Origin: Acholoe squamosa
Taxonomy: Eukaryota > Annelida > Polychaeta > Phyllodocida > Polynoidae
Direction of reading: 5' to 3'
Length of the DNA: 64,000 nt
Assembly: GCA_949317995.1 (NCBI GenBank)
Contig: OX439039.1
Span: 18,529,282-18,593,281, forward strand
Program-made: the position numbers and the translations under genes
Part shown: positions 34,802 to 64,000 of the stretch, one piece after another
Position numbering within the stretch: position 1 is the stretch's first letter
Layout: each line of letters begins with the position of its first letter
Notes under the pieces: model-generated
What the model saw: the letters and a program-made list of their open reading frames with translations, nothing else
What the model was told of the DNA's origin: nothing
Databases searched by the model: none

Positions 34802-35497
34802 ATGTATGGACGTACTACACGTGAAGATGTATTGAACTTTGAGTTCAAGGAGAAAGAAGAAACAACATATGAAGAATATAAAGACGGATTAAGAAAGATT
34901 TTCTGCGGGTATGGTAAAATACCGGTGCATTATTATGCAGCTCAGATGGAATTGGTTCTACTTCACTCTTTTATACCGGAATTTCACCACAGAAAAATGT
35001 TCCGACTGTATCATGAGATAGCCCGAGATCAATTTCTCAATTCGCATGAACTGATTCCTCAGTTGATTCACTACGGATGGTATGATGTGCGCTCGATGTT
35101 GAACATCCTCACTAGCAGTGGAATGCCACATGATGTACTACCTCAGATATGTTTCAATGAAGCTAAGCGCGTAGTGAAGAAATATGATTTTTCACAGGGG
35201 TTTTCTCTAGAAAACTCATGCATTGACTTAGTCGTTTATGTTACAGTGGAAAAGATTAAGAAAGTTGTTGGACCGGCAATTTTCCATTCTGAGTATTATC
35301 ATGACATGCCTGGAATGGGTCAGGTTGAAGCTATAGTGGAGGAATACAGTAGGCTGCTTCCCTCTACAGTGTACGAACGAGTCAGACAGAGAATCGTGGG
35401 GACAGTCACCCCTTTCAGAGGGAGGGAAATTCTCACAAGTCCCAGATGTAATGTGTATAAGACTATACACAGATATGCTAGTGGTAATTACCTTTAA
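34802..35497 (+). CDS. unknown virus-like protein, paralogue A
   Basis: Single exon of 231 codons with a true ATG. I do not recognise the family. It begins MYGRTT. A well-conserved core (FCGYGKIP, then HYYAAQMELVLLH) is shared with the next gene. Other shared blocks are KYDFSQGFSLENSCIDLV, EYYHDMPGMGQV and a C-terminal TVTPFRGREI. It looks soluble and mainly helical, with no signal peptide, membrane span or zinc cluster. The high similarity to its neighbour in the same orientation indicates tandem gene duplication inside the element. It could be a structural or host-interaction protein. No function can be assigned. Confidence 0.7.
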   Translation: MYGRTTREDVLNFEFKEKEETTYEEYKDGLRKIFCGYGKIPVHYYAAQMELVLLHSFIPEFHHRKMFRLYHEIARDQFLNSHELIPQLIHYGWYDVRSMLNILTSSGMPHDVLPQICFNEAKRVVKKYDFSQGFSLENSCIDLVVYVTVEKIKKVVGPAIFHSEYYHDMPGMGQVEAIVEEYSRLLPSTVYERVRQRIVGTVTPFRGREILTSPRCNVYKTIHRYASGNYL

Positions 35498-35764
35498 ATA
35501 ACAGGACAGAAACAGTGTATACCATCTAACGAGTTTAATGGTCTATTTCTACAGTGTTCTCTAGTTCACCTCCTACACACCAGTCGGAGCTACTAATCAG
35601 ATACAGTTATATCGCTATCAGACGCTATACAGTGAATCTTATACACGGAGACATTTTCTTATCACCCTAATATTGTTTTGGAATTATCTGACGTTTTCAG
35701 CACTGCAGGATACTTTTCATTATCCTATTACTATTTTTGGAAAGTATCTGACGTCTCAGTAGTT

Positions 35765-36472
35765 ATGTACGGTCAAACAACACCTCAGGAAGTAGATTCC
35801 TTTAATGATTTCTCATTTAATGAGACTGATGAGACCACTCGTGATGAGTTCATAAATAAATGCAGGACTGTTTTTTGTGGATATGGTAAGATACCAATTA
35901 ATTATTATGCTGCACAAATGGAACTTGTCTTATTGCATACCCACATGGAATCGTGGTTGGAGCCTAGAATGTATAGCATATATAATAGAATGGCACGACA
36001 TCAGTATATGGCATCCCATAATCTAATGACTCAGCTTTTTAGAAAGGACTCTTATGATCACAGAGAGATGCAGCGAATACTTGAATCAGCAGGACTGGTA
36101 TGGCATGAACGGAGCAGTATTGTTCGCCGGAATGCAATACGTGCTCTTGCTAAATACAATTTCTCTGAAGGATTTACTCTACTGAATACATGTATAGACA
36201 TGATAAGCGGTGTCATAGTCGAGAGGGTGAAGAATACAGTAGGTTCAGGGGTGTTTTTCACTGAGTACTACGATGATATGCCTGGAATGACTAAAGTCAG
36301 AGCTATTCTTGATAAGCTTGATCAGCAGCTACCTGCCATTGTATCCCGTCGTGTTAAGTTCAGAGTTTTGGGCACTGTTGCTCCTTTCAGAGGTCGTGAA
36401 ATTTTTACCAGTTCTCATTGTTTGTTATACAAAACTCTGACTGCTTATGCTACTGGTAAAATACGTGTATAG
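35765..36472 (+). CDS. unknown virus-like protein, paralogue B
   Basis: 235 codons from the ATG at 35765. The frame is open further upstream, but the MYGQTT start aligns with the MYGRTT start of the preceding paralogue, which decides the start. Shared blocks are FCGYGKIP, NYYAAQMELVLLHT, KYNFSEGFTLLNTCIDMI, EYYDDMPGMTKV and TVAPFRGREI. The two copies have diverged substantially between these blocks, so the duplication is old, and both frames are intact, which implies selection to keep both. The family is not recognised. Confidence 0.7.
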   Translation: MYGQTTPQEVDSFNDFSFNETDETTRDEFINKCRTVFCGYGKIPINYYAAQMELVLLHTHMESWLEPRMYSIYNRMARHQYMASHNLMTQLFRKDSYDHREMQRILESAGLVWHERSSIVRRNAIRALAKYNFSEGFTLLNTCIDMISGVIVERVKNTVGSGVFFTEYYDDMPGMTKVRAILDKLDQQLPAIVSRRVKFRVLGTVAPFRGREIFTSSHCLLYKTLTAYATGKIRV

Positions 36473-36732
36473 ACCCATTTGTAGATCACATGATATTGAA
36501 AGAGATGAATTAGAAGTTCTAAACATCGACATAGCTGAATAATCATTATTATATGATATGGATATATTATGCTGAGTACATGTAGTAATATACTAAAGTG
36601 TAGTATAGATATATTTGCACCTATATATTTCAGTTAAATGTATCTAGATATACATCGGATTTCACCGGATTACCGGATATACTGTAACTCAATACACAGG
36701 ATACGTCATAGGGTCGTGTCTACTTAGTTTCA

Positions 36733-37216
36733 TTAGATTTTTTTTACACGCTCTTTTAATTCAATGTCACGGCCAGATCTCAATCTCATGCACTCAGGGC
36801 GTTTGGGGGTTTCTGAAGTCACTGGCACATCACATGTCAGTTCAGGCGATGACAGCCATTTGTTAAGGACGCCTGCTTCACACTTAATGATAGGGGACGC
36901 AGTAGGTGTAGTGAACCTGTCTTCTCCCATGCTTAAGACCATAGGGGTAGAGGTTGTTCTGTGCAGCGTTGAGGAGTTAGGCGATTCTTTCAAATTTCCG
37001 GGCACTGAACTTTTGGCACCACACTGTTCAACACACTGTTCAACATCTTGTGTACCCCCAACCCAGGCACCTGGTTGAGTAGGTTTCCATGAGACTGATT
37101 GGTCGTTAGAGGTACTGGGAGGCACAGTAGCAGCACTTTGAGAGGGTTCTGAGTAGGGTCGGGTATCCTCGTTCCCACAGTCAGCATTTTTGTCTCTGGA
37201 TGTAGGGTCAGTCAAC
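36733..37216 (-). CDS. Ser/Thr/Pro-rich ORF, possible 3' exon of the transmembrane-protein gene
   Basis: A minus-strand frame ends with TAG/TAA-type stop at 36733 and encodes about 161 residues of low-complexity Ser/Thr/Pro sequence with a basic end (RLRSGRDIELKERVKK). An ATG exists further upstream at 37320, which would give 195 residues with a hydrophobic N-terminal stretch. Alternatively, an acceptor TTGTACTTAAG ending at 37217 joins in phase to a strong GTAAGTAT donor at 51074-51073, which would make this the cytoplasmic tail of the transmembrane protein. In that case the retrotransposon lies inside the intron. The splice model is an inference from phase and consensus only. Confidence 0.4.
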
Positions 37217-37365
37217 CTTAAGTACAATAAATGAAGCATGAGGAGCGTGAGAGAACCCTGTATGGTATTCATGTATGTCTTGCGAGAAATCAATCTTAAA
37301 CTTTGAGTTTTACAACACATTTAAGAATCTGATATAATATATGAGAATATATGAGTATATGTATG

Positions 37366-37783
37366 TGTAGGGGTATGGTATTTTACACTTTAACGTTCAT
37401 GCACCCGTGAGACTCAGACCTAGGTCCTTCGGGTGTGGTGGGGGAATCCGGATGGCAGGTGGCAGCACCTGCCTCTGGGTTCGTATCCACTACACCAGGG
37501 GGCCTACCACTCGTCCGCCACACGTCACGTGGCCGGTCTGAGTTTCGCGGGCTTTTCCCCTATATAAGGCTGGTCCTAGCCCTAGGTTCCTCAGTAGTGG
37601 TTTACCCACTGCTCAACCAGGTTGTTACCCGAAAGGGTAACCGAATGCACTAGCAGCATGTAGTCCTCTGAGGCTGTGATCGTATGTAACGCAAGCTCTG
37701 AAATAAAAGCTCGGTTGCCTACCCGGAAACTTTTCTCTCTCTTCGTTATGATTTAATCTAACTTAACGAGACGAACCACTACA
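37366..37783 (+). repeat. 5' LTR
   Basis: 418 bp, TG...CA ends. A TATATAAGG promoter box at 37561-37569 and AATAAA at 37702-37707 mark U3, R and U5. A GGTTCGTATCC word at about 37477 resembles a tRNA-gene B box, but no tRNA fold was found. The short frame inside the LTR is not a gene. Confidence 0.97.
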
Positions 37784-37784
37784 C

Positions 37785-37796
37785 TGGTGCCGTGAC
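37785..37796 (+). promoter_or_regulatory. primer-binding site, tRNA-His type
   Basis: TGGTGCCGTGAC starts one base after the LTR and is complementary to the 3' end of animal tRNA-His including CCA (12 bases as I recall that tRNA). It primes minus-strand DNA synthesis. Confidence 0.7.
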
Positions 37797-37826
37797 CAGT
37801 TGGTCTTCGGGTAAGCGCAGTCAGAA

Positions 37827-40568
37827 ATGACTGAGCTGAGCCCAGTTAGGGGAAATGGCTCAAATCGTGAGCTAGACTCCCCGATGGAGGATGGTGAAAT
37901 CAAGTCACCACCCCAAGGTACGGAGTGGAGGGATCCACTAGAACACTACCCTGATGGGTTAGAAGATGTAAGAAGAAACTTACATCATGAACTGGATGAA
38001 TTTGGAGACTCCTTATTCATGCCAGGAGGTACTTCGAAACCTGCACCAATGCATAAAAGTACTGCTCAATTTGGTAAATTACCATTTGAGGTACCAAAGC
38101 CTAGTGCAGGTATGTTTGAAACTCCATACAGTTCTCGAATTAAACACCAAAAATGTGGATTCGAAAAGAACAAAATGGACGAGCTTGAAGACATGAGAGC
38201 TGAATACGAGAAGATCCAGAAGGATCTTATTACACTGACCGGAACCCGAGACAAGATTCTGACTGAAAACAAACAGTTGATATCGGAACGTCTCGATTAC
38301 GATCAGAGTTGTAGACGCCAACAACAATTGTTGTTGGATCAGATGGAGAAAGAAAAGCAAGATTTTCAACTCCAGCACGAACAGTATCGTGATGCACTAT
38401 ATACGGCGGATCTGGAATACAGAGCCTCGTATGATGAGTTGAATAGAACTAAACAAGAGTTAAATTCAACTCAATCGGCCTACGGCAAGTATCAAGAAGA
38501 GCTGAAGAAAATAGAATCAGCCTTCAAAGATGCTCGGGAAACGTACCAAAAACAGACCGATGAGCATGAAAAACTCAAAGATCAATTGATACGCGAATCC
38601 ACAGATTTGGCTGTTAAACAGACTAAAATGATGGATGATTATTCCGAACTGGAGGCTAAAGCTATCCAGATGTCAAAGTATCTAGAAGATACTGGTCGTG
38701 CAGTAGGCACTCTTGAATCAGACTTCACTGTTTCAGGAATTGCCCTAAACACGACAAGTAACCAGATGTTCTCTTTGAGGGGCAATGACGGGGTAACAGA
38801 GACAACTGTACCTCGTTATGAAGGAGTAAAGAGTCATCAGGTTAGATTTACAGATAATACCTCTATACCTCTTGGTCTAGGTACGGGAAATAAAGGGGAT
38901 AATTCTGCGAGTGGAGCTAAACAAAGCCGCTCGGCAGGAAGCTCCACCTTTGACGGCGGATGGCCACAACAGTCACCTTTAGGGGGACCAAATGGCCCGT
39001 ATGCCCAGTATGGATGGAATCAGTCCCAAACAGGAACGAATCCGTCCAATGGTAACACCCGGAACACGTCCGGAGGAACAACCGGACGAGCACCCGGAGG
39101 TTCCAGTACAGCTGGGGGGCAATCCGGATGTGATCAAGGATCCGGACCCTCAAGCGATCGTTCCAGGAGCAGACCCTCTGCCAGTGGGACTGGTTTCAAT
39201 AATGGAAATCAGTCGTATGGAACAGGAGGAAACACTAATCCCAATAGTGGTTTCTTTAGCTTTGGTGGAAATACACAACCCACCAATGGTCCAGGGCCGG
39301 CTCCCCAAACCAGTGGATACACCTTTTCACAGGTGCCTCCATACGGAGCAGGGGGATCAGGAGGTGGAGGAGGACCACCATCCGGAGGCTTTGGAAGTAC
39401 TTATGGTACGAATCCTCCAAGGAAAAAGAGACTCAGTCGCCGAGTATCTCTTTCTCCAGGGTTACAAGCGCTGCATGATTCTAATGCAGCGATTGCTAAC
39501 TTAGGTGTTGATTGTTACAATCAAGGTCTGGACGATACGGAGATCATGGAATGGAGTAAGGGTTTAACCCTTACTGGATCCACGAATCCGGCTCGTAGAG
39601 TAGCTAAGATACCTACCCCCTTTAATGCCAAGAACCCTTGGAAGGAGGAGTATCAAGGCTGCGCGGATGTCTTTAACTGCAATGGATGGGGTAAAGCGGA
39701 AGCTCTGCCTTATTTAGTATGCTGGTTAAAGGAAGGCGACGGAAAAGGAGCCGTGGAACAATGGAGAGATTCTCAAATAACAGGACTCTCAGCCCATATG
39801 AAGTATGATGAACTCATAGAGATTGCTTCATATTTATATGGGAATATAGTTGGAGAAGACCCTTGGCTGACGTTCACTAAAAGAACACAGAAGCCCAAGG
39901 AGTCTGCCAAAGTGTTCGGCTTAGAATGTCAACGACTGTTGCATAAAGCCAGACCTCAATGGAGACTAGATGATGAATGCTTCCTAGATGAGATGTTTAA
40001 ACAATTCATTGAAGGATTGCGGAATCAAGAACACAGGACAGTAGCCTGTGAAGCTTGGAAGAATGATGCCTCTTTGACAGATTTGTTCCAGTCCCTAGAT
40101 CATTATGATCGAAAGGCCCGTATCTTTGCCGGGAAGGTACCCCAACGGATGTCAGCAATGATAATCCCGGAGGGAATACCCGAAACCGATTCATCCGAAT
40201 CAGGGGAACCTGACGAAGATGAAAACGTTGGGGCCATTGGCCAAGGGAACCCCCGGTACAACCGGAACTGGGGAAAGAAACCGGGTTACGTCAAGGAGAA
40301 AGTGATCACTTCTAAACCTCCTGTGACTCAACCCGATACCAAACCCACGACGGGTCCTTCTTTATCAGAGGACCTGGTTAACAATTTGGTAAAGAAGATT
40401 ACTGAAAATCTTAGGAGGCCTAAGCCTGATAGGACTGTTGTGACATGCTTCCGATGTCAGGAAACTGGGCATTATGCTGCCGAGTGTGAGGCAGATAAGC
40501 CAGTTTATAGAAACACTCGTTACCGGAGCAATCCGGGTAAGGAGGACTCAGTGAAGAAGGAAAACTGA
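37827..40568 (+). CDS. gag: Gag polyprotein of the Ty3/gypsy element
   Basis: 913 codons, starting 43 bp after the LTR. Residues about 110-300 form a long Lys/Glu/Gln coiled coil, unusual for a gypsy Gag. Residues about 380-540 are a Gly/Asn/Ser/Pro-rich disordered region. Residues about 590-780 look like the retrotransposon Gag capsid domain (NPWKEEYQGCADVF ... YDELIEIASYLYG ... MFKQFIEGL). A zinc knuckle, C-x2-C-x4-H-x4-C (CFRCQETGHYAAEC), sits near residue 873 and should bind the RNA. Gag would assemble the particle in the cytoplasm. The length is well above the usual 300-500 residues because of the coiled coil and the disordered insert. It ends with TGA at 40566, overlapping the pol frame. 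Confidence 0.95.
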   Translation: MTELSPVRGNGSNRELDSPMEDGEIKSPPQGTEWRDPLEHYPDGLEDVRRNLHHELDEFGDSLFMPGGTSKPAPMHKSTAQFGKLPFEVPKPSAGMFETPYSSRIKHQKCGFEKNKMDELEDMRAEYEKIQKDLITLTGTRDKILTENKQLISERLDYDQSCRRQQQLLLDQMEKEKQDFQLQHEQYRDALYTADLEYRASYDELNRTKQELNSTQSAYGKYQEELKKIESAFKDARETYQKQTDEHEKLKDQLIRESTDLAVKQTKMMDDYSELEAKAIQMSKYLEDTGRAVGTLESDFTVSGIALNTTSNQMFSLRGNDGVTETTVPRYEGVKSHQVRFTDNTSIPLGLGTGNKGDNSASGAKQSRSAGSSTFDGGWPQQSPLGGPNGPYAQYGWNQSQTGTNPSNGNTRNTSGGTTGRAPGGSSTAGGQSGCDQGSGPSSDRSRSRPSASGTGFNNGNQSYGTGGNTNPNSGFFSFGGNTQPTNGPGPAPQTSGYTFSQVPPYGAGGSGGGGGPPSGGFGSTYGTNPPRKKRLSRRVSLSPGLQALHDSNAAIANLGVDCYNQGLDDTEIMEWSKGLTLTGSTNPARRVAKIPTPFNAKNPWKEEYQGCADVFNCNGWGKAEALPYLVCWLKEGDGKGAVEQWRDSQITGLSAHMKYDELIEIASYLYGNIVGEDPWLTFTKRTQKPKESAKVFGLECQRLLHKARPQWRLDDECFLDEMFKQFIEGLRNQEHRTVACEAWKNDASLTDLFQSLDHYDRKARIFAGKVPQRMSAMIIPEGIPETDSSESGEPDEDENVGAIGQGNPRYNRNWGKKPGYVKEKVITSKPPVTQPDTKPTTGPSLSEDLVNNLVKKITENLRRPKPDRTVVTCFRCQETGHYAAECEADKPVYRNTRYRSNPGKEDSVKKEN
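40541..40568 (+). promoter_or_regulatory. gag-pol overlap, probable -1 frameshift zone
   Basis: The pol frame is -1 relative to gag and is open from 40541, after a TAA at 40538, so the two frames overlap by 28 bp. The only standard-frame slippery candidate is GGAAAAC (40559-40565) directly before the gag stop. It is not a canonical X-XXY-YYZ heptamer. The first ATG in pol is far downstream, so frameshifting is the simplest route to Pol. Confidence 0.5.
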
Positions 40569-43500
40569 GAGGGGGTGTCCACAATGGCAACCGGATTACC
40601 CCCAGAGTGAGTGATTGCCATGACTGCCAGCCTATCGCAGCTTGCGGTACTGGCAAGAATCCTCTAGCGATTTCGCCCAGCAGTGAAGCTAAGGAGCCTG
40701 ATCAGTTCCTTACTCATGAGGCTGGGGAGACTGATAGTACACCAGGTGTCAAGAACCGGCAGAAGAACACAGAGGGGAAACCCGATATCAGTCCAGAGGG
40801 AGCGGCCAATGAGTTGGCCAGGGTGGGGTGTGCCCAGTTCCCCCCGGGTCATCCTTGTCTCGAATTCTTAAAGGGATGTGGATTTGACCTCGGCGCTAAG
40901 ACGGAACTTGCTAAGTATGCAAGTAGTCCTACCTACTTGAAAGGTAGGAGGTGGTACGCAGTTGTATCTGTGAGTGGTAGATCCGCTGAGTTTCTTGTCG
41001 ATACGGGTGCTAGCCACTCCTGTATTGCTAAGAGATTCTACGATCTTTTGCCTACGAATCATGAAACTTTCACAACGGAAGGAAATGCTCGTACGGCCGA
41101 CGGTAGCATGATACAAACGTTCGGTAGAACATGTATGAGGTTCAGTCTACAGGAAGATAAGGACTTCATCCTTACCCCTACTGTGGCGAACATCGCGGAT
41201 GATGGTATACTCGGTCTGGATTTTGCTGCATTATATGGAGCAAGGTTAGATTCCCAGAGGGGAATATTGGAAGTGAGAGACCCGTACCATCTCGAAGTAC
41301 AATGTGTACTTAGGCAAGTAAGCAGTGTAGCCAGTGTAGCCCAGACTGTTAAGATACCACCAGGCACAGCCTGTGATGTCTTATGTCGAGCGGACAGACA
41401 GTTTTCAGGAAAAACTGGAGTTGTAGAGCCAGACATGGCCATGTTGTCAAGTATCGGATTGGAATCCGCTGATGTTCTAGTAGCTAACGCTGCTTGGACG
41501 GTGGTTCCTATATCCAATACCGGTAACAAGACTGTCTATGTACAGAAGGATACGATCCTTGGATCGGTTGTCTTATCCGAATTGATAGAAGACTGTAAAC
41601 ATGTTTCGGCACCCGGAGCCCCTTCCTCACCCGAAAGGAGCCCGGAACTAGACACTCTAGTAGCCGAAAGCCATGTAGAAAGTGATGAACAACGTGAAGC
41701 TCTAACTGACTTGTTGTACAAGTACCGTAAAGCTTTTGCAGCACCGAGTGAACAATTGGGGCGTACCGATAAAGTACTGCATACGATTGACACTGGTGAG
41801 AATGAACCTTTTAAGATTCCTTATAGAAGACTCCCACTAGCCAAAAAAAAGGTAGCTGAGGAGGAGATAGCTAAAATGCTTGAACAGGATGTAATAATTC
41901 CATCAACCAGTCCTTGGTCTAGCCCTGTGTGCATGGTGACCAAGAAAGATGGTAGCATCCGTTTCTGCATAGATTACCGGAAATTGAATGGTATGACCAA
42001 GAAGAATTCATATCCCTTACCACGGATCGATGAGACTATAGACTCCCTTGGAGGTAAGCAATGGTATTGCTCTCTAGACTTACAATCCGGGTACTGGCAA
42101 GTGGGTATGCATCCGAAAGATATGGAGAAGACGGCCTTTTCCAGTCATATTGGATTATTCCAGTATAATGTGATGCCGTTTGGATTGTGCAATGCACCGG
42201 CGACATTTGAAGCCATGATGGAAACTTTATTAAGTGACCTTTTATGGAAGAAATGTCTCGTCTATCTAGACGATGTGATTGTCTTTGGAAAGACATACGA
42301 AGAATGCTTGGAAAATTTAGGTATGGTCCTGGAAAGGATCATAACTAATGGTTTGAAGCTGAAACCCAAGAAGTGCGATCTTTTCAAAAGATCTATTAAT
42401 TACTTGGGGCGAATAATCTCGAATGAAGGGATTAAAGCCGATCCGGAGAAACTGGATGCCGTGTCAAATTGGCAAGCACCCACGAATGCGAAAGAAGTTA
42501 GGTCCTTCCTCGGATTCTGTTCCTACTACCGGGACTTTATCCCAGGATATTCAAGGGTTGCCTTTCCTATCCAGAGTTTGTCCCACTGGACACCCGGGAT
42601 CAGAAAGGAACGATTCCCTTGGGGACCCGAGCAAGACGAGGCCTTTATGAAAATAAAGGATTTGTTTGCTATCACACCTGTGTTGAGATACCCCACGGAG
42701 AATGATCATTTCATTCTAGATACTGATGCTAGTAATGAAAGCATAGGAGCCGCCCTTTCTCAGGTCCAGGATGGGGTCGAAGTTCCTATAGCCTTCGCTA
42801 GTAACACGTTGAGTAAATCTCAAAGAAACTATTGTACCACTAAACGTGAGTTGTTGGCTGTGGTGGTCTATACGAAGAAGTTCAAGCACTTTTTGTGGGG
42901 GAGTGATTTCACTCTACGGACTGATCACTCTTCCCTCAGATGGTTATTGAACTTCAAAGATGCAGAGGGGATGATAGGTCGCTGGTTAGCGCACCTATCC
43001 GAATTCGGTCTAAATCACAGCCAGATTGAACACCGAGCCGGGGCAAAGCATTTGAATGCAGATGCTTTGTCTAGAATCCCAGTGAGGAAATGTGCAAATG
43101 CTGAGTGCACTGATTGTGGAGCACACAATGCTGTGTTGGCAGGGGTTCGAGTTCCATTCGAAACCCATCCGGAACATGTCTTGAATTGGTCCTTGGAGAC
43201 CATCAGGCAGTTCCAGAAGTCTGATGCAGTCACATCACGTTTGATTAAATTCCTTAATCAGGGTATCTGTCCCCCAAGACCCGTAGTGTCATTGGAGAAC
43301 AGAGAGATGAGACGATTCTTAGCTCAATGGGCCGAGCTAAAAGTCCGGGATGGTATTCTGTTTCGATGGAAGAACCATTCTAATAGGAACAAAACCTTGC
43401 AAGTTGTCATACCTAGTGCTATGCGACGAGATATTATGTATTTCTGTCATGGACATAGAACTAGTGGGCACTTTGGAAAGAAAAGGTCTCTAGAACGTCT

Positions 43501-44800: not shown

Positions 44801-45354
44801 CCTGTTAACACAACGAGTGTGTTGTCCTGTACTGTGTACTGTTATATGTTGTAACCTAGTTCAATGTATATTTGAGCCGGTCAAGAGTCTCTGGAAAAGG
44901 TCCTATGACAATGAACCCATGGTTTTGGACGGATAATCCGGTGGATATGCTTATGCTATCCATAAACTCCAGAATACCTAGCGAATTGTCATAGTCGAAC
45001 CCTGAGTACGGACGGACGACCGATCGGGTATTGTATTGTTTTTATGTAAGGGCGCGTGACCTAATTAAGGGCACGCGGGAAAGTTGTTGACCCATTTTCG
45101 AATGGTCACGTGAGGCGCCGGTTTGATCATGCGCAGCGATTCAAGTTCGAGTATCCCGCCATATTGTCTTATTCCTGCGAAGGAAGAAGACGTGGCCGAG
45201 GGTGGTCTTGCTCTTGTTGGAGTCTGATAGCCCGTGACAGCCATATTCCGAGGTGTGCCCTCGTTAAAAGGCACCCGCCTTTCACTGGGTAAGCAGTACT
45301 CACTGCTTATCCGGTGGATTGGGATATTTTATCCCCGAACAGCCACTTCTGTCG
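44801..45354 (+). other. pol-ORF3 intergenic region of the retrotransposon
   Basis: 554 bp without a supported gene. A near-perfect hairpin (GGTAAGCAGT / ACTGCTTATCC, 45288-45312) lies 43 bp upstream of the ORF3 ATG. It also contains a GGGTAAGC donor-like sequence. ORF3 may be expressed from a spliced or internal transcript. No start site can be fixed. Confidence 0.5.
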
Positions 45355-55117: not shown

Positions 55118-55999
55118 ATGGATAGTTCTAGCTCTAGCTTTTCACTCTCGGATCTCCCTCAGGAGATTTTTTGGTTAGTCATTACATTCTTAGAACATGA
55201 CAGAAAAAGCTTACACAGATTTGCTATAGCCTCAAAAAGAGCTCGGGGTGTTCTTTCTTTAAAAGAGACCTGGAAATACTTTATAAAGAGACGTTTTATA
55301 ACACTTCATGACTGGTCTGATATAGAGGTTTTTATTGACAGATTGAATTGTCTCAAAACCCTCTATCACAGGCTTTTTGATGTGTGTGATAGTTTAGATA
55401 ATATCCACAACAACATTGGCTCGAATTTACACAGGCGTTTAGGCTCAATTCTCTCAGAAAACAAATGTTATAGCAGATCTTATGAATTACTTCTCATATT
55501 TAAAAAGTTAATTGTAACTCTCACTATCTTTAAGGTTTATTCAGAAAAAAGAGACCTTCACTATGTAATGCAATCGCGAGAAGGTTTCAAAATAGGTCGG
55601 GGTCTGGCAAGCTGTGGTGTAAAGGTTGTAGATTCTGGAGAAATTGTTTCTTTTTTTCTGGAATTTTCTGGTAACTCTGAACACTTTGAGAACTTCAAAA
55701 TTCCTATTCTTTTTAACTTAGCGCATATTGGTAGAGATATTGATATAAAGTTTAAAGAGCTTTTCTTTGACGTATTGATAATAGAGATTAGGAAATATAT
55801 CAGTCCTTCAGTAACATCCAGGCATACATTCTTAAATAATGTTTATAATCTGAGATCGGATATTTTCTGGTTGGTTAATGCTAGTGCATTTATCAGAGAC
55901 TTGTATATAACAGACCCCGATCTAGAGAATATTTGTGATAGAATAGACGATATTGTAGATCCTGGATTTAAAACACTGCGTCATCTCATGATAAGCTGA
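55118..55999 (+). CDS. F-box protein
   Basis: 293 codons, single exon, ATG start. Residues about 9-50 match the F-box pattern (LSDLPQEIFWLVITFL ... LHRFAIASKRARGVL ... TWKYFIKRRF). The rest is helical with no recognised substrate-binding repeat. F-box proteins link substrates to SCF ubiquitin ligases through Skp1. It lies only 31 bp upstream of the polymerase on the same strand, so it probably shares a transcript or promoter. Viral F-box proteins are known to redirect host protein degradation. A similar role here is inference. Confidence 0.68.
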   Translation: MDSSSSSFSLSDLPQEIFWLVITFLEHDRKSLHRFAIASKRARGVLSLKETWKYFIKRRFITLHDWSDIEVFIDRLNCLKTLYHRLFDVCDSLDNIHNNIGSNLHRRLGSILSENKCYSRSYELLLIFKKLIVTLTIFKVYSEKRDLHYVMQSREGFKIGRGLASCGVKVVDSGEIVSFFLEFSGNSEHFENFKIPILFNLAHIGRDIDIKFKELFFDVLIIEIRKYISPSVTSRHTFLNNVYNLRSDIFWLVNASAFIRDLYITDPDLENICDRIDDIVDPGFKTLRHLMIS

Positions 56000-56030: not shown

Positions 56031-59000
56031 ATGTTTGACTGTCCTGTTTGTGGTAAGTCATATAAAAAGATTTTTTATCTCAATAAGCATATTGAAACAC
56101 ACATTCCTGAGAAAAAAGGAAATGGTGCCTCCCCTGCAGCTCACACAGTTACCAAACATATCTGTCATGTCTGTGGGAAAGAATTCCCTAAACGTGGCAA
56201 CCTGAATCTGCATTTAGACAGGCGTCATGGTCTTAATGCTATTGGTAACGATAATGATAATCATAATGATAACCAGAATAGCAGCCATGCCGGTTCTCAA
56301 CCTATACCAACTGATCAAAATTCCCCAGACATTACTGATCAGGGTTTTGGATCAGGGGGGTTATATTCATTGCGTCAGGTGAATGAGCAATTTTCAAGAA
56401 AATTCCAGGTTAGACATACAACATACACTTTTAGATTAAATATGAATGAAAAATTTAAATCTATGAAGGATGTTTTGGCACGGCTTTTTGAAGTTTTTGA
56501 GAAACTGGTTGAAGAACTGACTTTGAAATTTGGTTCTGACGATCTAATTAGAATGACCATAGACAGTAGAGATATAGACTATCCTATACTCATACATTTC
56601 AATACGGTTAGTAGCATCAGTGCTAGAGATATTCTAACCGAGATAGACAGAGTTTTACAGAGTTTCAGTGTTTTTAACCTGAACAAGGGTTGCACGATAA
56701 CAGTCACTCATGTCAAAGTTCCTTCAGGATCAGGGCGGGAACCAATCACTCATCTTCTCAAAATTAAAAGGTGTGTAATATATATCAAGAATAGAGATAA
56801 TTGCTGTGCCATTCGAGCCTTGGTTGTGGGTAAAGTTCTAGCAGACAGCAGTGGTAACCGTCTGAACAGCGCAGTACGGAAAGTCTGTGAAAATAAATTG
56901 CTGCAGTTACGCATGGTAAAAAAATTATATAAATTCTCTAAGATACCCTACAACACTCGTATAACACTGCCTATGTTTGACAAATTGTCTAAAGCCCTGA
57001 AAGGATACCGCATCATGATAGTTTCTAAAGATCACTTAAATTCTATAATCTATGATAATCGTGTTAAAACACCCCGGATAATAAGTCTATATCACTCAGA
57101 TGGTCATTTTGATGTTCTTACAAGTCTCCCTTCCTTTTTCGGTAGGTGTCATTTCTGTACTATATGTTATGCACGTACTAATAATCACCACCAGCATGCA
57201 TGTAAAGACATATGTAAATTGTGTAAACATGAACATAAACCTGAGAACGATGCCGAATGGTTTTACTGTGTGAAATGCAACCGTAGTTTCAAGGGTATGG
57301 ACTGTTTCAATTTTCACTCTAAAAAATACCCTGCATATCGTGGTAGTGGTTCTGGTACTAGTAAAAAAAAAAAAATGAGAAAATCCGTGTGTCAGACCTG
57401 GTATAAATGCAGAACCTGTAATATGTTCTTAAGAAGAAAAAATAAGCTTTTGATTAATAAGGGTGCATCTAAACGCCATGTATGCTTCATGAAAAAATGT
57501 GGTATCTGTCATGTTGATTATAATACCTTGAATGAGCATATTTGTTATATTCAAAAGGTTAAGTCTGTTTCTGAGTCGGAAACTAAAGACTTATCAGTCC
57601 AGCGATATATATTTTTTGATATAGAATGTACTCAAGATACAGGCAAGCATGTACCCAATCTATGTATAGCAGAGCGCACATGTCATGACTGTATTAAATC
57701 AGGGCATGCTCAGAGAAAATTTGACGCTGCTTCTAGTTGTGAAACGTGTGGTATAAATCAACATGTTTTTTATGGTGAGGGGTGCGTAGAGAGGTTCTGT
57801 GAATGGGCTTTAGTGAAAGAACACAAAAACAGTAAAATGATATGTCATAATTTCCGTGGGTATGACTCTTATTTCATTTTAACCTACATTTATTCTAAAA
57901 TACTGAAACCAGGTATTATTTACAATGGTGGTAAGGTAATGAGTCTCAAAGTCCCTCCATACAATATCCGTTTTTTAGACTCCCTGAATTTTCTCCCAAT
58001 GGCTCTCTCTAAGATACCTAAGACATTTAACATTCCTGAATTATGTAAAGGATTTTTTCCGCATTTATTCAATAAAAAATCTAATCAAAATCATCATGAT
58101 CAAGTTCTACCTCCAACTTATTTCTATATGCCGTGGGTCATGAAACCTAGTGTACATAAAGAATTTGTTAAATGGTATGATTCAAACCTTTTAAGTGATT
58201 TCAATTTTAAAAAGGAGTTAATAGATTATTGTAAAAGTGATGTACATATCCTCCGTCGTGGTTGCTTGGAATTTAGAAATATTTTTATGGAAATCTCGGG
58301 CAAACACAAAATCGATCCCTTTGAGAAATGTCTAACTATAGCTTCTGCCTGCAATCTTGTGTACAGAACTATGTTCATTAAAGAAAACACTATCCCTGTA
58401 GTAGCTCATTTTAAACCTTATGATAATCATTCAGTACATAGTATGCTATGGTTAATATATATAGAAAGAACAAAAGGTATTCAATTAAGACATGCTAGGT
58501 CTAAAAAAGGTGAATTTAGAATAGGTGGTAGAAAAGTAGACGGGTATCATTCAGGTTCACGCACTGTCTACCAATTCCATAGTTGTTTTATTCATGGTCA
58601 CGATAAATGTTACCCATCTCAAGTGTATAATACTTTTTTGAGTAAAAGTATGGGCGTCCTGTACCAGAATACAATGAGACTTGATGAAGAAATTAGGGAT
58701 TTAGGGTACTCAATTGAGACCATCTGGAGTTGTGATTTTGATGAGCTACGAAAGACTGTAAAATACAACTCTGTAATGAATGATGTTTCAATTGTCGAAC
58801 CCTTACAGCCAAGAGATGCTTTTTACGGTGGTAGAGTAGATACAACTAAAACATATCATAAATGCGGTAGGAATGAGAAAATTGAGTACATGGACTTCAC
58901 TAGTTTGTATCCCTATGTAAACAAATACTGTAAATACCCGTGCGGTGAGCATAGAGTAATACCTGCTGAACAGTGGAGTGAGAATGTTGACATAGAAAAC

Positions 59001-60299
59001 ATTGAAGGGCTGATAAAATGTTCTGTCTTACCACCAAGGAAATTGTATCACCCTGTACTACCGATGAGGTATAAAGATAGGTTATATTTCACCTTATGTA
59101 AATCGTGTGTTGTATCAGCCGATAATATATTTAATAGCACCAGTGATAAAGATGACTATTTCTCTGCATTTTATGGTTTTTTTAACGGGCAATCTTACTC
59201 ATGTAATCACTCTGATAGTAAACGTATGATCACCGGTACATGGGTATCCATGGAACTGAAAGAAGCTGTAAGAGCTGGGTATAAAATAGTTAAAGTATAT
59301 GAGGCATGGCACTATGACAACGTTTCTGTATATGATAAAAAGACAAAAACTGGAGGGCTTTTCACTGAGTACATCAATGCTTTTCTGAAAATAAAGCAAG
59401 AGAAAAGTGGTTGGCCTAGCTGGGTTAAAAAACCTGAAGACCGGCAAACCTACATTAACCACTATTACGAGAGGGAGGGAATACTTTTAGACCCTGATAA
59501 CATAGAATATAACCCTGGGTTGAGAGCGGTTGCTAAGCTAATGCTGAATTGTTTTTGGGGTAAGTTTGGTCAGAAGCAAAATCAAACGAAATCAGTCTAC
59601 ATTACAGAACCTGCTGAATATTTTAAACTTATAACTGATAAAAGAAAAGAAATATGCAACATTCAACTGGTCAATGAAAATGTTATATTCGTGGAATACA
59701 AATCAAAGAGGGAATTTGTACAACCTAACAGTAAAATAAACGTTGTCATAGCAGCATACACTACAGCTCATGCTCGAATGAAACTGTATTCTATCCTGAA
59801 ACGTTTGGATAGACGTGTCATGTATTATGATACTGATAGTATAATATTCAGATCATACATTAACCCTCCACATAACTGTAGCGAATACACACCACCTACT
59901 GGTGATTATCTAGGCGACCTAACTAATGAGCTACCTGAAGGTCATTTTATTTATGAATTTGTTTCCACAGGGCCTAAAAGTTATGCTTACAAAACATGTG
60001 ATTTTGAGGGTAACAAGCAAGATGTCATATGTAAAATAAAAGGTATAAACCTGACGCAGAGTGTATCAGAAAACATAAACTTTACCAGTATGAAAGACTT
60101 ACTACTTACTGAACTGAGAGCTAGAGCTGGTCAGGAGGTGTACAAGCCTCTCAAAATGATGGTAAAGAACAGAAGTTTTATTACTCGTGATAAAGCTTCT
60201 GCTGTTATACGCACTATAGAACAGCTTAAATGTTTTCAATGCGTCTTTGCAAAGCGTTATGTTTTAATCGATGGTGAGACTATACCTTTTGGATACTGA
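56031..60299 (+). CDS. protein-primed type family B DNA polymerase with N-terminal C2H2 fingers
   Basis: 1422 codons, one exon. Two C2H2 fingers lie at residues 4-24 and about 45-66. A region near 250-400 (RDNCCAIRAL ... SDGHFDVL ... CTICYA) has a Cys/His pair arranged as in the cysteine-protease-like module of Polinton polymerases, followed by several Cys/His zinc clusters. The 3'-5' exonuclease is complete: ExoI D530/E532 (FFDIECTQ), ExoII D612 (HNFRGYDSYF), ExoIII Y733/D737 (YCKSDV). Polymerase motifs: A D955 (DFTSLYPY), B K1169/N1173 (KLMLNCFWGKFG), C D1267/D1269 (YYDTDS), then KSYAYK. Long inserts between A and B fit the protein-primed group. It would replicate a linear genome from terminal proteins. 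All catalytic residues are present. Confidence 0.93.
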   Translation: MFDCPVCGKSYKKIFYLNKHIETHIPEKKGNGASPAAHTVTKHICHVCGKEFPKRGNLNLHLDRRHGLNAIGNDNDNHNDNQNSSHAGSQPIPTDQNSPDITDQGFGSGGLYSLRQVNEQFSRKFQVRHTTYTFRLNMNEKFKSMKDVLARLFEVFEKLVEELTLKFGSDDLIRMTIDSRDIDYPILIHFNTVSSISARDILTEIDRVLQSFSVFNLNKGCTITVTHVKVPSGSGREPITHLLKIKRCVIYIKNRDNCCAIRALVVGKVLADSSGNRLNSAVRKVCENKLLQLRMVKKLYKFSKIPYNTRITLPMFDKLSKALKGYRIMIVSKDHLNSIIYDNRVKTPRIISLYHSDGHFDVLTSLPSFFGRCHFCTICYARTNNHHQHACKDICKLCKHEHKPENDAEWFYCVKCNRSFKGMDCFNFHSKKYPAYRGSGSGTSKKKKMRKSVCQTWYKCRTCNMFLRRKNKLLINKGASKRHVCFMKKCGICHVDYNTLNEHICYIQKVKSVSESETKDLSVQRYIFFDIECTQDTGKHVPNLCIAERTCHDCIKSGHAQRKFDAASSCETCGINQHVFYGEGCVERFCEWALVKEHKNSKMICHNFRGYDSYFILTYIYSKILKPGIIYNGGKVMSLKVPPYNIRFLDSLNFLPMALSKIPKTFNIPELCKGFFPHLFNKKSNQNHHDQVLPPTYFYMPWVMKPSVHKEFVKWYDSNLLSDFNFKKELIDYCKSDVHILRRGCLEFRNIFMEISGKHKIDPFEKCLTIASACNLVYRTMFIKENTIPVVAHFKPYDNHSVHSMLWLIYIERTKGIQLRHARSKKGEFRIGGRKVDGYHSGSRTVYQFHSCFIHGHDKCYPSQVYNTFLSKSMGVLYQNTMRLDEEIRDLGYSIETIWSCDFDELRKTVKYNSVMNDVSIVEPLQPRDAFYGGRVDTTKTYHKCGRNEKIEYMDFTSLYPYVNKYCKYPCGEHRVIPAEQWSENVDIENIEGLIKCSVLPPRKLYHPVLPMRYKDRLYFTLCKSCVVSADNIFNSTSDKDDYFSAFYGFFNGQSYSCNHSDSKRMITGTWVSMELKEAVRAGYKIVKVYEAWHYDNVSVYDKKTKTGGLFTEYINAFLKIKQEKSGWPSWVKKPEDRQTYINHYYEREGILLDPDNIEYNPGLRAVAKLMLNCFWGKFGQKQNQTKSVYITEPAEYFKLITDKRKEICNIQLVNENVIFVEYKSKREFVQPNSKINVVIAAYTTAHARMKLYSILKRLDRRVMYYDTDSIIFRSYINPPHNCSEYTPPTGDYLGDLTNELPEGHFIYEFVSTGPKSYAYKTCDFEGNKQDVICKIKGINLTQSVSENINFTSMKDLLLTELRARAGQEVYKPLKMMVKNRSFITRDKASAVIRTIEQLKCFQCVFAKRYVLIDGETIPFGY

Positions 60300-60758: not shown

Positions 60759-61241
60759 TTAAAAATGTCCCGGCAGGAGTGATTTATAATATTCCACGCT
60801 CTGGACATTTGCATGCTCCAGCATTGAGAACAGACGAATCAATTCCACACTGTTCATTGTGAACGAGTCATAAGATCCTAGTGCAGAAAAGACGGTGAAA
60901 TTGTCTTTACCTGGGGTCTTCTGGAAAATGAATCCCTTCGTCACACATTTAGTGAAAACAGGCCAGGGTTCCGTTGCTAGATCGTTAATAAGTTCAATGT
61001 TTTGAACCATGTCGCGCCACTCCTCGAAAGTTATTTCTATGGTATACTCCTCCGTGTCATCATCGGGGCTGGGCATTATACAGAACTCAGCCTCACACTC
61101 CTCAGAGTTAACATCGTTATAATTCAGGCGCAAATTCAGTGTTGGTGACACACGATAAATAACCTGCATGAACTTATCGCCCTCCTCATTTGCATCCCAC
61201 ACGAGCACATCGTTATATGCTGTGAATTTTAATGCAGGCAT
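60759..61241 (-). CDS. small acidic unknown protein, possible PC4-like relative
   Basis: 160 codons with an ATG at 61241. It is acidic, with alternating beta-like sequence, then YTIEITFEEWRDMVQNIEL, which resembles the strand, E/Q-W and final-helix end of a PC4 fold as seen in the gene at 53502 (LTVNQWRTLCDNIEAI). The C-terminal 60 residues have no recognised relative. If the similarity is real, the element has two ssDNA-binding-type proteins. The evidence is a short pattern only. It is divergent from the next gene across a 417-bp interval. Confidence 0.6.
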   Translation of the reverse strand: MPALKFTAYNDVLVWDANEEGDKFMQVIYRVSPTLNLRLNYNDVNSEECEAEFCIMPSPDDDTEEYTIEITFEEWRDMVQNIELINDLATEPWPVFTKCVTKGFIFQKTPGKDNFTVFSALGSYDSFTMNSVELIRLFSMLEHANVQSVEYYKSLLPGHF

Positions 61242-61658: not shown

Positions 61659-61900
61659 ATGGATTTCCTCAGAAGAGGTGTAAATATGCTCAGACGTTTG
61701 TTCGGAAGGTGAGTACTATAAAAACAATTTGTTAAACCTATCGTTTTGTTTTGTAATCGATGAACAACACAAGACTTGATGTATGATCAGGGTACCGGTG
61801 TCATGTTAAATAGAGGGCGTATAGGTTTATAATAAGATATGGGTGTTGACAAAACTTGAGTCCGAGTGAGCAGTTTAACAGCAGTATACTAAATAATCTC

Positions 61901-61936
<36 letters not shown>

Positions 61937-63072
61937 CATATAGCATAGCGCCAATACAAGTTCATCCAAGGTCTGTCACCTCTCCGGAACTCCCAACTAT
62001 GCATGATGTATCTCAGGACTTTGAGGGGCGCCCAGACACTTCAGGACTAGCGTCACCCTCTGTGCCAGAGGATAATGGGGATCCCGGGGTTGGAGGTTCA
62101 CCATTACCTGAGTGCATAACTGATTCTAATAAAGTGTATGAGACGGTTCATCTTAATCTGACATTAAATCTGACGGTCAACGATCATTCAGATCTAATAG
62201 ATAGACCTGAAGTACCCACAGTAGAGGTTAACAAGGTATGTGTCCAGTACACACGACAAATGTCTAAAAATTCAGGGGAGGAAACACCCCAATATAAAGT
62301 TACTGTTAACACACAACCCCATGACCCTAGCACCTCAACACCTAGAGATGTGGAATCCAATGGGATTGGCAGTGGTAGTCCAGTGACCCAGAACGTTCAA
62401 ACTGCACCCAGTGACATGATGCACTGTGTCACATGCAGCGGCTGTGATGAGACTGCCACTCCCCCTAACGATAGAGATGTTGATAACTGTAACGTAGCGT
62501 CATGCAGTACACGTGCTACATGCACTGAACCCGATATCATGACACCCACCGATGACTGCGGTCCAGGATCTCATCAAGGGTCCAGTGTTAATCCACTCAG
62601 CGTTGAAATGTCAGAAACTGACTGTGGTTTCAAGGAGAATATGAACATGACTCATGCAGACCTCCCTAGCTCCAGCAATGCTCTCAGTGGGGGTAATTTT
62701 CAAGAGCATACTGAGGAAATGCAGAGTCCCCGCAATGGTGATACAATTTTTAAAAACCCCAATCCTGACAGTAATATGGGATATCTCACCGCACAGCCTG
62801 ACACCCATACAGGACACAGTGTACAGGAGGGGAAGAGCTTAGTGTTCAGTCGTTTTAAGCTGAATTTATCTCATGGATCAGATAACATGTTCTCTAAGGG
62901 CACACCCAGTGTTACAGCCTCTGAATTGGGATCTGTTAACGATATCAATCCAAGAAGAGCCAGTAGAAAGCGTCGAAGTGATATCGATACATCATTCATC
63001 ATGGGGGATCTACTCTCACCTGTTGCTAAATCAACAAGGTCTTGCATCCGTAAGAAAAGGCTTTCTGAATAA
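61659..63072 (+). CDS. two-exon unknown protein with hydrophobic-basic N-terminus and basic C-terminus
   Basis: Exon 1, 61659-61708, codes for MDFLRRGVNMLRRLFG, which can form an amphipathic helix. The donor is GTGAGT. Exon 2 runs 61944-63072 after a CT-repeat polypyrimidine tract ending ATATAG. The phase agrees and gives 392 residues. The middle is Ser/Thr/Pro/Asp-rich and disordered, with several cysteines (CVTCSGCDE). The C-terminus has RRASRKRRSD and RSCIRKKR, likely nuclear or nucleic-acid-binding. A short amphipathic N-terminus with a basic tail would suit a membrane-active or core protein of a virion, but this is speculation. No family is recognised. Confidence 0.62.
61905..61934 (+). 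repeat. (TC)n microsatellite used as polypyrimidine tract
   Basis: About 30 bp of CT repeat directly precede the acceptor at 61943, so the microsatellite doubles as the splice-site pyrimidine tract. Length changes there could alter splicing. Confidence 0.85.
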
Positions 63073-63133
63073 TAGGTATCCACAGGACTATATAAGTATA
63101 TATGGATCGACATGATAAGATAAGTCTATTACA

Positions 63134-63304
63134 CGTCTATTATTTGTATCTATACGATAGACTACATGTATGACCAGAATAGTTAAATGCCGAGTATATA
63201 AACTAAAGAAACACATATTTATATGTCTATTATTTGTATCTATATGAAAGACTACATTTATGACCAGAATAGTTAAATGCTGAGTATATAAACTAAAGAA
63301 ACAT
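63134..63304 (+). repeat. 91-bp direct repeat, two copies
   Basis: Copies begin at about 63134 and 63225 with GTCTATTATTTGTATCTATA and share TGACCAGAATAGTTAAATGC and GAGTATATAAACTAAAGAAA. Few differences separate them, so the duplication is fairly recent. It lies in the 3' flank of the two-exon gene. Confidence 0.92.
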
Positions 63305-63667
63305 GTTGATAAAAGTAACACAGAAGCATGTATGTTGATATATATTTTCTTTGTTCGTGTTTATTTATGATTAAGGTATAGAAAAATAATCGTGAGGATT
63401 AAGACATACATATTAGTACAAAGATATCAATACACGGTATCTGATACATTGATTCGAACCATCACCCTGATACATAGGTATATTTTTCTACCCGTTACCT
63501 CTGGTAGCATAAGTATTATATATATATATATATGAATGGTGTAATAAAACAGTATTCTTGATAGATAAACATGAAGAAATTTGTTGAAACATAATAAATC
63601 AGTATTATGGTTGTTTCTGTAATAAACAGGTTCAATTACATTAACGTAAGTAAATACAACTCTTGGT
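63305..63667. other. AT-rich intergenic region between convergent genes
   Basis: No gene. A (TA)n tract lies at about 63517-63532, and AATAAA signals occur on both strands. A GATTCGAACC word near 63451 looks like a reversed B box, but no tRNA stem set could be drawn. Confidence 0.6.
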
Positions 63668-64000
63668 TTATTTCATTACGGTCACAGCTCTATTCATATC
63701 TATTTTAAACATTGAAGGAAATGTAGAATAGATAATCAGTGACACGCTCTCAGGGAGAGACTCTGAGAAATTCATCTGAATTCTTAAGTTACCCTTCTTC
63801 ATAGTAGGCCATACAGTACCATCTGATTCCTCTCTAATATCAGGTTCTAAATCGAAAGCAAACAATGTATAACCTTTCGCAAACTCACTACGTGTTATGT
63901 ACAACCCCTCATCACGACCATCTGTGAAACGTTCTCGTCCATACATAGCTATGTAGGCCTCAATGAAAGATGACTTGTGATGGTTACTATCAAAAGTCAT
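63668..64000 (-). CDS. C-terminal part of a probable Polinton-type capsid protein (cut by window edge)
   Basis: 110 codons to the stop at 63668; the frame continues past 64000. The sequence GYTLFAFDLEPDI ... KKGNLRIQMNF ... LPESVSLIIYSTF ... IDMNRAV follows the C-terminal pattern I associate with the large invertebrate family usually labelled F54H12.2-like. That family occurs with Polinton/Maverick elements, and a jelly-roll capsid role is likely. Alternating beta strands fit such a fold. Only the last part is visible, so length and active parts cannot be judged. Its presence next to a protein-primed polymerase supports the element assignment. Confidence 0.6.
   Translation of the reverse strand: MTFDSNHHKSSFIEAYIAMYGRERFTDGRDEGLYITRSEFAKGYTLFAFDLEPDIREESDGTVWPTMKKGNLRIQMNFSESLPESVSLIIYSTFPSMFKIDMNRAVTVMK

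What the first reader, a model, noticed from the sequence alone, without database searches (positions are those of the whole stretch)
34802..64000. Intron-bearing Polinton/adintovirus-like element with an unusual gene set
A protein-primed type PolB is combined with a PC4-like protein, an F-box protein, an LRR-headed mucin-like membrane protein, a duplicated unknown pair and a probable capsid protein. At least two genes (53502-54816 and 61659-63072) have canonical in-phase spliceosomal introns, which is not the usual state of Polinton genes. This may be a poorly described lineage of integrated animal DNA virus or virus-like transposon.
Basis: partly seen in the sequence, partly recalled or inferred. 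Interest (0 to 1): 0.88.

Follow-up and report, generated by a model that had tools for sequence, protein, structure and literature searches.

The report
Intron-bearing Maverick provirus in animal genome
This stretch holds a complete-looking, recently copied virus-like element of the Maverick (Polinton) kind, and it is unusual because two of its genes are interrupted by introns that stayed at the same places while the family diversified, although such elements are usually described as intron-free.

Summary
The window (C5:18529282-18593281 of an unnamed 1.48-Gb genome) carries most of a Polinton/Maverick. It begins at 34315, not 34802, and ends 7.0 kb beyond the window. It has 150-bp inverted ends (97%) and a 6-bp target duplication, GGTATT. 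Past the edge lie the rest of the capsid gene, a minor-capsid relative, a chromodomain integrase and an A32-type ATPase. Two corrections: 37366-50761 is a nested 13.4-kb Gypsy retroelement, and the 'PC4' and 'F-box' names got no profile support.

The window's subfamily has at least 30 copies; the duplicated gene and the LRR-mucin gene pair up in 30 of 30. Three introns in two genes are supported by comparison: splice sites, positions and phases are kept in diverged copies while intron sequence and length change. Vertebrate Mavericks are reported intronless (PMC8097293), and a survey of protist relatives assumed no introns (PMC10120064). New variant of a known kind. No transcript was seen, no protease found, the capsid fold not verified, the host not named.

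The parts
34309..34314 (.). left 6-bp target-site duplication GGTATT; right copy directly after L015 7296 (window-equivalent 71015-71020)
34315..34464 (+). left terminal inverted repeat, begins AGTAGC; right copy at L015 7147-7296 (window-equivalent 70865-71014), 97.3% over 150 bp
34802..35497 (+). dupA, orphan protein, 231 aa (predicted helical, low-confidence model)
   Evidence: no homolog at E 1e-3 in the large protein search; 150 matches listed in the own genome, 30 of them at 99-100%; paired with the LRR gene in 30 of 30; model pLDDT 50
35765..36472 (+). dupB, paralog of dupA, 47% identical (pN 0.35, pS 0.82)
36733..37320 (-). 195-aa ORF, hydrophobic near the N-terminus, Ser/Thr-rich, unknown
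37366..50761 (+). NOT part of the element: nested Gypsy-type LTR retroelement, identical LTRs (37366-37783 and 50344-50761), 4-bp target duplication TATG; gag 37827-40568, pol 40607-44800, further ORF 45319-49032
   Evidence: empty site with one TATG in 5 of 5 same-subfamily copies read
51071..52363 (-). LRR-headed (weak match), Ser/Thr-rich protein with one hydrophobic span, 430 aa (ORF open to 52435)
   Evidence: LRRNT E 0.016, below cut-off; hydropathy; 30 copies at 97-100%; weak relative at L015 6119-6892 (E 3e-6 over 72 aa)
53511..53730 (+). intron 1 of gene 1, 220 nt, phase 0, AAG|GTGAGT...CTCAG|CC
53731..54290 (+). spliced gene 1, exon 2
54291..54593 (+). intron 2 of gene 1, 303 nt, phase 2, CAG|GTATTT...TTACAG|G
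54594..54816 (+). spliced gene 1, exon 3, its most conserved part (dN 0.07, dS 0.50 against L021)
55118..55999 (+).
   Evidence: found in 9 of 20 upstream regions
56031..60299 (+). family B DNA polymerase, 1422 aa; C2H2-like N-terminus (Pfam below cut-off), OTU-like motif D256/C259/H359 (reading recalled), exonuclease and polymerase motifs
   Evidence: DNA_pol_B_2 2.8e-39; alignment of 22; tree; copies
60759..61241 (-). 160-aa protein, unknown
   Evidence: matched in 3 of 12 downstream regions, some of which are cut short there
61659..61708 (+). spliced gene 2, exon 1
61709..61943 (+). intron of gene 2, 235 nt, AG|GTGAGT...TATAG|C (a second in-frame acceptor ends at 61970)
61944..63072 (+). 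spliced gene 2, exon 2; whole protein 392 aa, unknown
63668..64000 (-). last 110 aa of the major capsid protein; the gene runs on without a stop to window-equivalent 65032 (454 aa)
   Evidence: Further genes in L015 (window-equivalent = L015 + 63718): minor-capsid relative 2964-3509(-), integrase 3506-4678(-), ATPase 5398-6126(-), second LRR-type protein 6119-6892(-)

Best explanation
It is an integrated Polinton/Maverick element of 23.3 kb, adintovirus-like in its genes, later split by a 13.4-kb Gypsy insertion. Shown from sequence: inverted ends, 6-bp target duplications at different sites, PolB, chromodomain integrase, A32-type ATPase, capsid protein and minor-capsid relative, PolB and capsid module pointing at each other, and many near-identical copies. 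Inferred: the integrase inserts the linear DNA, PolB copies it by protein priming from the ends, the ATPase packs it into capsids, and host polymerase II and spliceosome express it. Three spliceosomal introns in two accessory genes are old, inherited parts of the element. The two LRR-mucin membrane proteins are most likely surface proteins for attachment or decoy (guess).
For: TIR 150 bp at 97.3% and TSD GGTATT. Of 11 loci examined for ends, both were recognised at 6, and 5 of these 6 have a 6-bp TSD, one of them a run of C. rve 9.4e-10, Chromo 2.1e-6, Pox_A32 9.4e-7, all over the Pfam cut-offs. Against L002/L003: capsid protein 33% over 428 columns, E 3e-75; integrase E 3e-64; minor-capsid relative E 2e-10; ATPase E 3e-8. 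DupA and LRR gene paired in 30 of 30. PolB listed downstream for 45 of the first 75 dupA rows; in the window's subfamily 15 of the 19 distances are 9,603-9,631 bp. Window and L020 identical over 1,500 bp. Gene-1 splice sites kept in L021-L024, 4 of 4 diverged loci printed; gene 2 in L038 and L039, 2 of 2. Exon 3 87% identical in L021, introns 54-57%.
Against: No transcript was seen. No protease was found (E 0.19 with the one query tried). One of the 6 copies with both ends lacks a TSD (C9), and the right end was not found at two copies (C17, C1:3.3M), nor in 5-kb stretches there. 30 of the first 75 dupA rows had no PolB in the list, which holds 71 scored of 871 candidates. Some copies carry stop codons in dupA (4 of the 30). 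Priming, packaging and particles are inferred. The capsid fold was not verified: the fragment model had pLDDT 41.
Confidence: 0.9

Rival explanations
1. An ordinary intronless Maverick: the 'introns' are gene-model artefacts and the ORFs start at internal ATGs (53692 and 61999).
For: Exon 1 of each gene is tiny (9 and 50 nt), and both exon-2 ORFs have an ATG of their own. No RNA data. Gene 2 has two possible in-frame acceptors. A 73-codon open frame as in exon 3 has about a 2% chance in matched random sequence.
Against: Both gene-1 introns keep position, phase and GT-AG sites in two diverged subfamilies while length changes (intron 1: 220 in the window, 267 in L021, 243 in L024; intron 2: 303, 220 and 358, the last two one less than the script prints, as for L020) and sequence is poorly conserved (54-57% against 87% for exon 3 in L021; 47-50% against 70% in L024). 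Exon 3 has no in-frame ATG, yet is the most conserved part. Gene 2 shows the same sites in L038 and L039.
Confidence: 0.05
2. A bare Polinton core (PolB, capsid, integrase, ATPase) beside ordinary host genes: the duplicated pair, the LRR gene and the spliced genes are host genes that happen to lie there.
For: The duplicated pair found no homolog elsewhere, the LRR-mucin protein looks host-like, and introns are a host feature.
Against: All these genes lie between the two TIRs. DupA and LRR gene stand 2,871-2,873 bp apart in 21 of 30 copies on many contigs. Spliced gene 1 and the 293-aa gene stand upstream of PolB in 9 of 20 copies examined, in three subfamilies. TSDs differ between copies, which speaks against segmental duplication.
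Confidence: 0.02
3. Not exclusive with the best explanation: a family that is now only a transposon or a domesticated element, in which capsid genes persist but transmission is by transposition within one germ line.
For: All evidence here is from integrated copies in one genome; no protease was found; some copies carry stop codons.
Against: Capsid proteins of diverged subfamilies are 84-98% identical in the pieces compared, as if maintained. PolB relatives are listed from several animal phyla.
Confidence: 0.3

Closest known systems
Vertebrate Mavericks (Barreat and Katzourakis 2021, PMC8097293; passages and section 7 read)
   Same: Gene modules on opposite strands pointing to the centre, flanking accessory regions, PolB, ATPase, integrase, capsid proteins, TIRs (46-1447 bp there, 150 bp here), 6-bp TSD, ends of a similar type ((AGT)2 there, AGTAGC here).
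   Different: Intact vertebrate elements are described as intronless and with a protease; here three introns and no protease found. There the ATPase lies in the PolB module, here with integrase and capsid. Size 23.3 kb is in the upper part of their range (12.7-24.6 kb).
Adintoviruses (definition read in passages of PMC11071296; Starrett 2021 itself not held)
   Same: PolB with an OTU-like motif, capsid protein, rve integrase with C-terminal chromodomain.
   Different: Intron-bearing accessory genes, orphan duplicated pair, two LRR-mucin membrane proteins. No comparison with reference Alpha/Beta hexons was made, so the clade is unassigned.
L002, a Polinton stretch in a contig filed under a Bacteroidia MAG
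   Same: PolB, capsid protein, minor-capsid relative and chromodomain integrase; PolB convergent with the capsid gene.
   Different: Has a probable protease (label recalled) and a TBP-like gene; of the window proteins tested against it only the capsid piece matched.
Nematode Mavericks with cargo genes (Widen; only one passage of a meeting report read, PMC10680173)
   Same: Mavericks carrying accessory and surface-type genes.
   Different: There a putative fusogen, proteases and kinases; here LRR-mucin proteins and orphans. Whether nematode cargo genes have introns could not be checked here.

Membership tests
Polinton/Maverick | family B DNA polymerase of protein-primed type | tested here: met
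   DNA_pol_B_2 2.8e-39; motifs intact. Protein priming itself is inferred.
Polinton/Maverick | retroviral-type integrase | tested here: met
   rve 9.4e-10 and Chromo 2.1e-6, above cut-offs
Polinton/Maverick | packaging ATPase | tested here: met
   Pox_A32 9.4e-7, above cut-off
Polinton/Maverick | major and minor capsid proteins | tested here: met
   Homologs of L002 ORFs in Polinton context: E 3e-75 and 2e-10. That those ORFs are capsid proteins is recalled; no Pfam match, fold not verified (pLDDT 41).
Polinton/Maverick | cysteine protease | tested here: inconclusive
   None found with one query (E 0.19), whose own protease label is recalled; low sensitivity
Polinton/Maverick | terminal inverted repeats | tested here: met
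   150 bp, 97.3%; again at 5 other copies
Polinton/Maverick | 6-bp target-site duplication | tested here: met
   5 of 6 copies with both ends recognised, one of the 5 a run of C
Polinton/Maverick | genes without introns (usual state in vertebrate Mavericks, not a definition) | tested here: not met
   three introns supported by conservation
Adintovirus | PolB with N-terminal OTU-like domain | tested here: inconclusive
   D256, C259 and H359 invariant in 22 sequences; the reading as OTU is recalled
Adintovirus | hexon recognisable by BLASTP against reference adintovirus hexons | not tested
   no reference hexon at hand; no fold search was run because the model was too poor
Adintovirus | integrase with C-terminal chromodomain | tested here: met
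Gypsy LTR retrotransposon (37366-50761) | identical LTRs, short TSD, protease, RT, RNase H and integrase in that order | tested here: met

The most novel reading that the evidence does not exclude
This is a lineage of animal Maverick viruses that expresses accessory genes through host splicing and kept those introns while it diversified, and that carries its own LRR-mucin surface proteins and an orphan protein pair, so that capsid formation goes with an enveloped or cell-surface-modifying way of life not known for Mavericks.
Probability: 0.25. Interest if true: 0.82.

Novelty: new variant of a known kind. Interest (0 to 1): 0.64.

Why it matters
A large survey of such elements used an intron-free gene finder on the stated ground that endogenous viruses do not contain introns (PMC10120064, passages read). 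A family with conserved introns means that such searches can miss or truncate genes. It also ties expression to nuclear splicing, as in adenoviruses (recalled), and makes the question 'virus or transposon' testable in one genome with many young, nearly identical copies.

Tried and rejected
PC4-like label: tested with the spliced protein, exon 3 and a 4-sequence profile against Pfam and PDB; no PC4 match, only weak unrelated ones. F-box label: no Pfam match; a test of its N-terminus alone was lost because held other queries in a wrong frame and I did not repeat it.

Folds: AlphaFold models of the 110-aa capsid piece (pLDDT 41) and of dupA (pLDDT 50) were too poor, so no fold search was run. Profile of 12 dup proteins against PDB: no match; Pfam: nothing significant. 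NCBIfam and Rfam gave nothing of use.

Viral contigs: of 6 scans, 5 found no relative and one a distant one (L001). I first wondered whether the capsid gene is spliced, because homolog P0121 starts at the same Met; the flank shows an uninterrupted frame.

Host-gene reading of the accessory genes: rejected. A PolB tree with named Polinton, adintovirus and bidnavirus references could not be made; the tree holds 102 rows taken from the 120 listed hits plus the window, most of them unnamed.

Literature: nine searches listed no title or abstract on spliceosomal introns in Polinton genes; the library lacks most subscription papers, and Starrett 2021, Widen 2023 and Kapitonov and Jurka 2006 were not held. 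PMC2646287 (passages) names Maverick genes and intron-containing genes separately, the latter for polydnaviruses.
Full report
What was checked. The finding names 34802-64000 as an intron-bearing Polinton/adintovirus-like element. The window proved to be C5:18529282-18593281 of an unnamed 1.48-Gb genome in 63 contigs, so sequence beyond the edge and other copies could be read.

A retroelement inside. 37366-50761 is a 13,396-bp Gypsy-type LTR retroelement: LTRs identical over 418 bp (TG...CA), 4-bp duplication TATG, aspartic protease, reverse transcriptase, RNase H and integrase domains. In 5 of 5 same-subfamily copies read at this site (L070-L073, L075) the flanks are contiguous with one TATG; in L074, of a diverged subfamily, only part of one flank aligned, and L076, another stretch of the L075 copy, matched neither. 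Gag, pol and the 1225-aa ORF do not belong to the finding.

The ends. The right flank (L015 = C5:18593000-18602999; window-equivalent = L015 + 63718) matches 34315-34464 inverted at L015 7147-7296, 97.3% over 150 bp. The element reads AGTAGC...GCTACT between two GGTATT. Its span is 36,700 bp, or 23,300 bp without the Gypsy element and its duplication. Ten other copies were examined for ends; both ends were recognised at 5 of them and at the window copy. A 6-bp TSD is present at 5 of these 6 (GGTATT, CACGAA, CACGTA, AAGGAC, and a C-run, weak evidence) and absent at C9:13.0M. At C17 and C1:3.3M only the left end was found, also after 5-kb stretches there were read. In the three copies of diverged subfamilies the window's TIR found at most part of the left end.

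The genes beyond the edge. L015 holds, all on the minus strand: the rest of the capsid gene (454 aa in all, one frame), a Ser-rich ORF (1580-2722), a 147-aa ORF, a minor-capsid relative (2964-3509), an integrase with rve and chromodomain (3506-4678), two small ORFs, an ATPase with a Pox_A32 match (5398-6126) and a second LRR-type membrane protein (6119-6892), so called for its similarity to the first (E 3e-6 over 72 aa; Pfam gave no LRR match, only sialomucin MGC-24 at 2.3e-4, below cut-off). A Polinton stretch in a contig filed under a Bacteroidia MAG (L002) served as yardstick. Its capsid protein aligns over 428 columns at 33% (E 3e-75), its integrase at E 3e-64, its minor-capsid relative at E 2e-10; an ATPase piece in L003 at E 3e-8; its probable protease has no match (E 0.19). 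The capsid piece inside the window alone gives E 3e-15. Calling these proteins major and minor capsid rests on recalled Polinton anatomy and on context; no fold was verified.

PolB. 1422 aa, open, exonuclease and polymerase motifs conserved in 22 aligned sequences, an OTU-like motif (D256, C259, H359; reading recalled) and a C2H2-like N-terminus. The search found 1,096 proteins, 120 listed. Four unnamed ones lie at 51-63%; the others listed are at 45% or less, among them bivalves, corals, a hemichordate, echinoderms and beetles. In a quick tree of 102 rows the window and these four group with SH-aLRT 100. The own genome has 206 profile matches, 71 of 871 candidates scored. Among the copies listed, 15 (the window's included) have an open frame of 1430 aa and 13 of 1426 aa; other sizes form further subfamilies.

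Which genes belong. DupA: 150 matches, 30 at 99-100%, 4 of these 30 with stop codons or flagged. LRR gene: 139 matches, 30 at 97-100%, one with a stop. The two sets pair one to one, 30 of 30; spacing is 2,871-2,873 bp in 21, 2,854-3,509 in 8 others, and 16,272 in the window, that is 2,872 plus 13,400 for the Gypsy element and its duplication. For PolB I compared the first 75 of the 150 dupA rows with the 71 scored PolB places: 45 of 75 have PolB downstream. In the window's subfamily it is 19 of 30, with 15 of the 19 distances at 9,603-9,631 bp. The other 30 of 75 had none in that capped list, among them all 10 rows of an 82% subfamily; and 26 of the 71 PolB places had none of those dupA rows upstream. 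Upstream regions of 20 PolB copies: spliced gene 1 and the 293-aa gene in 9 of 20 (three subfamilies); in the other 11, from more distant PolB lineages, nothing but one weak LRR match (L029, E 2e-4). Thus the gene set marks a lineage.

The introns. Gene 1: exons 53502-53510, 53731-54290, 54594-54816; gene 2: exons 61659-61708, 61944-63072. GC of the gene-1 introns is 22-27%, of exons 2 and 3 54%. In two diverged subfamilies (L021/L022 and L023/L024; exon 3 at 76-86% protein identity) both gene-1 introns sit at the same codons and phases, with ATGTCTAAG|GT and CTCAG|CCAGCT kept. Lengths differ, and in forced alignments introns are 54-57% identical in L021 (exon 3: 87%) and 47-50% in L024 (exon 3: 70%); exon 3 has dN 0.07 and dS 0.50 against L021. 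For gene 2 both exons were found in 4 of 12 downstream regions; the two diverged ones (L038, L039) keep AG|GTGAGT and TATAG|CATAGC. Exon 1 of each gene is short and no transcript was seen, so splicing is inferred from conservation, not observed.

How it probably works. Shown: an autonomous-looking gene set between TIRs and recent spread (window and L020 identical over 1,500 bp, four other copies 99.1-99.9%). Inferred: integration by the integrase, protein-primed copying, packaging, nuclear expression with splicing. The first LRR-mucin protein has a signal-like N-terminus (by eye), an LRR-type cap (weak match), a Ser/Thr-rich stalk and one hydrophobic span; a surface or decoy role is my guess. 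For the dup pair, pN 0.35 against pS 0.82 fits purifying selection.

Compared with what is known. Layout and ends fit vertebrate Mavericks as described in PMC8097293 (passages and section 7 read), which reports no introns in intact elements. PMC10120064 (passages read) used a prokaryotic gene finder for protist elements on the ground that endogenous viruses do not contain introns. PMC12220804 (passages) reports group I introns, a different kind, in some protist relatives. PMC11071296 (passages) defines adintoviruses by an OTU-bearing PolB, hexon and chromodomain integrase; the last is met here, the first fits by motif. PMC11071308 (passages) had no mention of introns. My nine searches of an incomplete library listed no report of spliceosomal introns in such genes.

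Verdict. A Polinton/Maverick by anatomy; adintovirus membership open; a new variant because of conserved introns, an orphan duplicated pair, two LRR-mucin proteins and no detected protease.

Noticed in passing
window 31971-34282: Fold-back repeat of degenerate ~20-bp units (AAACCTGGTTTT-like), arms 77% alike when inverted, ending about 30 bp before the element's left end.
   Followed up: no
window 34432-34695: Tandem 132-bp units just inside the element's left end, each with the palindrome AGTAGTACTACT (2 found, 0 expected). CTCF-like motifs, one mismatch allowed: 6 in the window against 1.3 expected, 3 of them at 34464-34608 (the motif is recalled).
   Followed up: partly
window 45319-49032: Third large ORF (1225 aa from 45355) of the nested Gypsy element, no Pfam match.
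   Followed up: no
G000 C1:10962020 and 9 others: Ten copies of an 82% dupA subfamily with no PolB in the capped list: PolB not scored, or non-autonomous relatives.
   Followed up: no
G000 C1:82982197: A copy whose dupA-PolB distance is 23,103 bp although the window's Gypsy site is empty there, so some 13.5 kb extra lies elsewhere in it.
   Followed up: partly
L042-L047: Other PolB lineages of the same genome stand beside capsid genes only 31-37% identical to the window's: several Maverick lineages in one host.
   Followed up: no
L002 and L003: Animal-type Polinton DNA filed under bacterial MAGs; L002 also has a TBP-like gene (TBP 1.5e-27).
   Followed up: partly
L001 10026-16675: IMG/VR contig with a distant PolB and four related ORFs in a row that look like capsid proteins (label recalled, by eye).
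   Followed up: no
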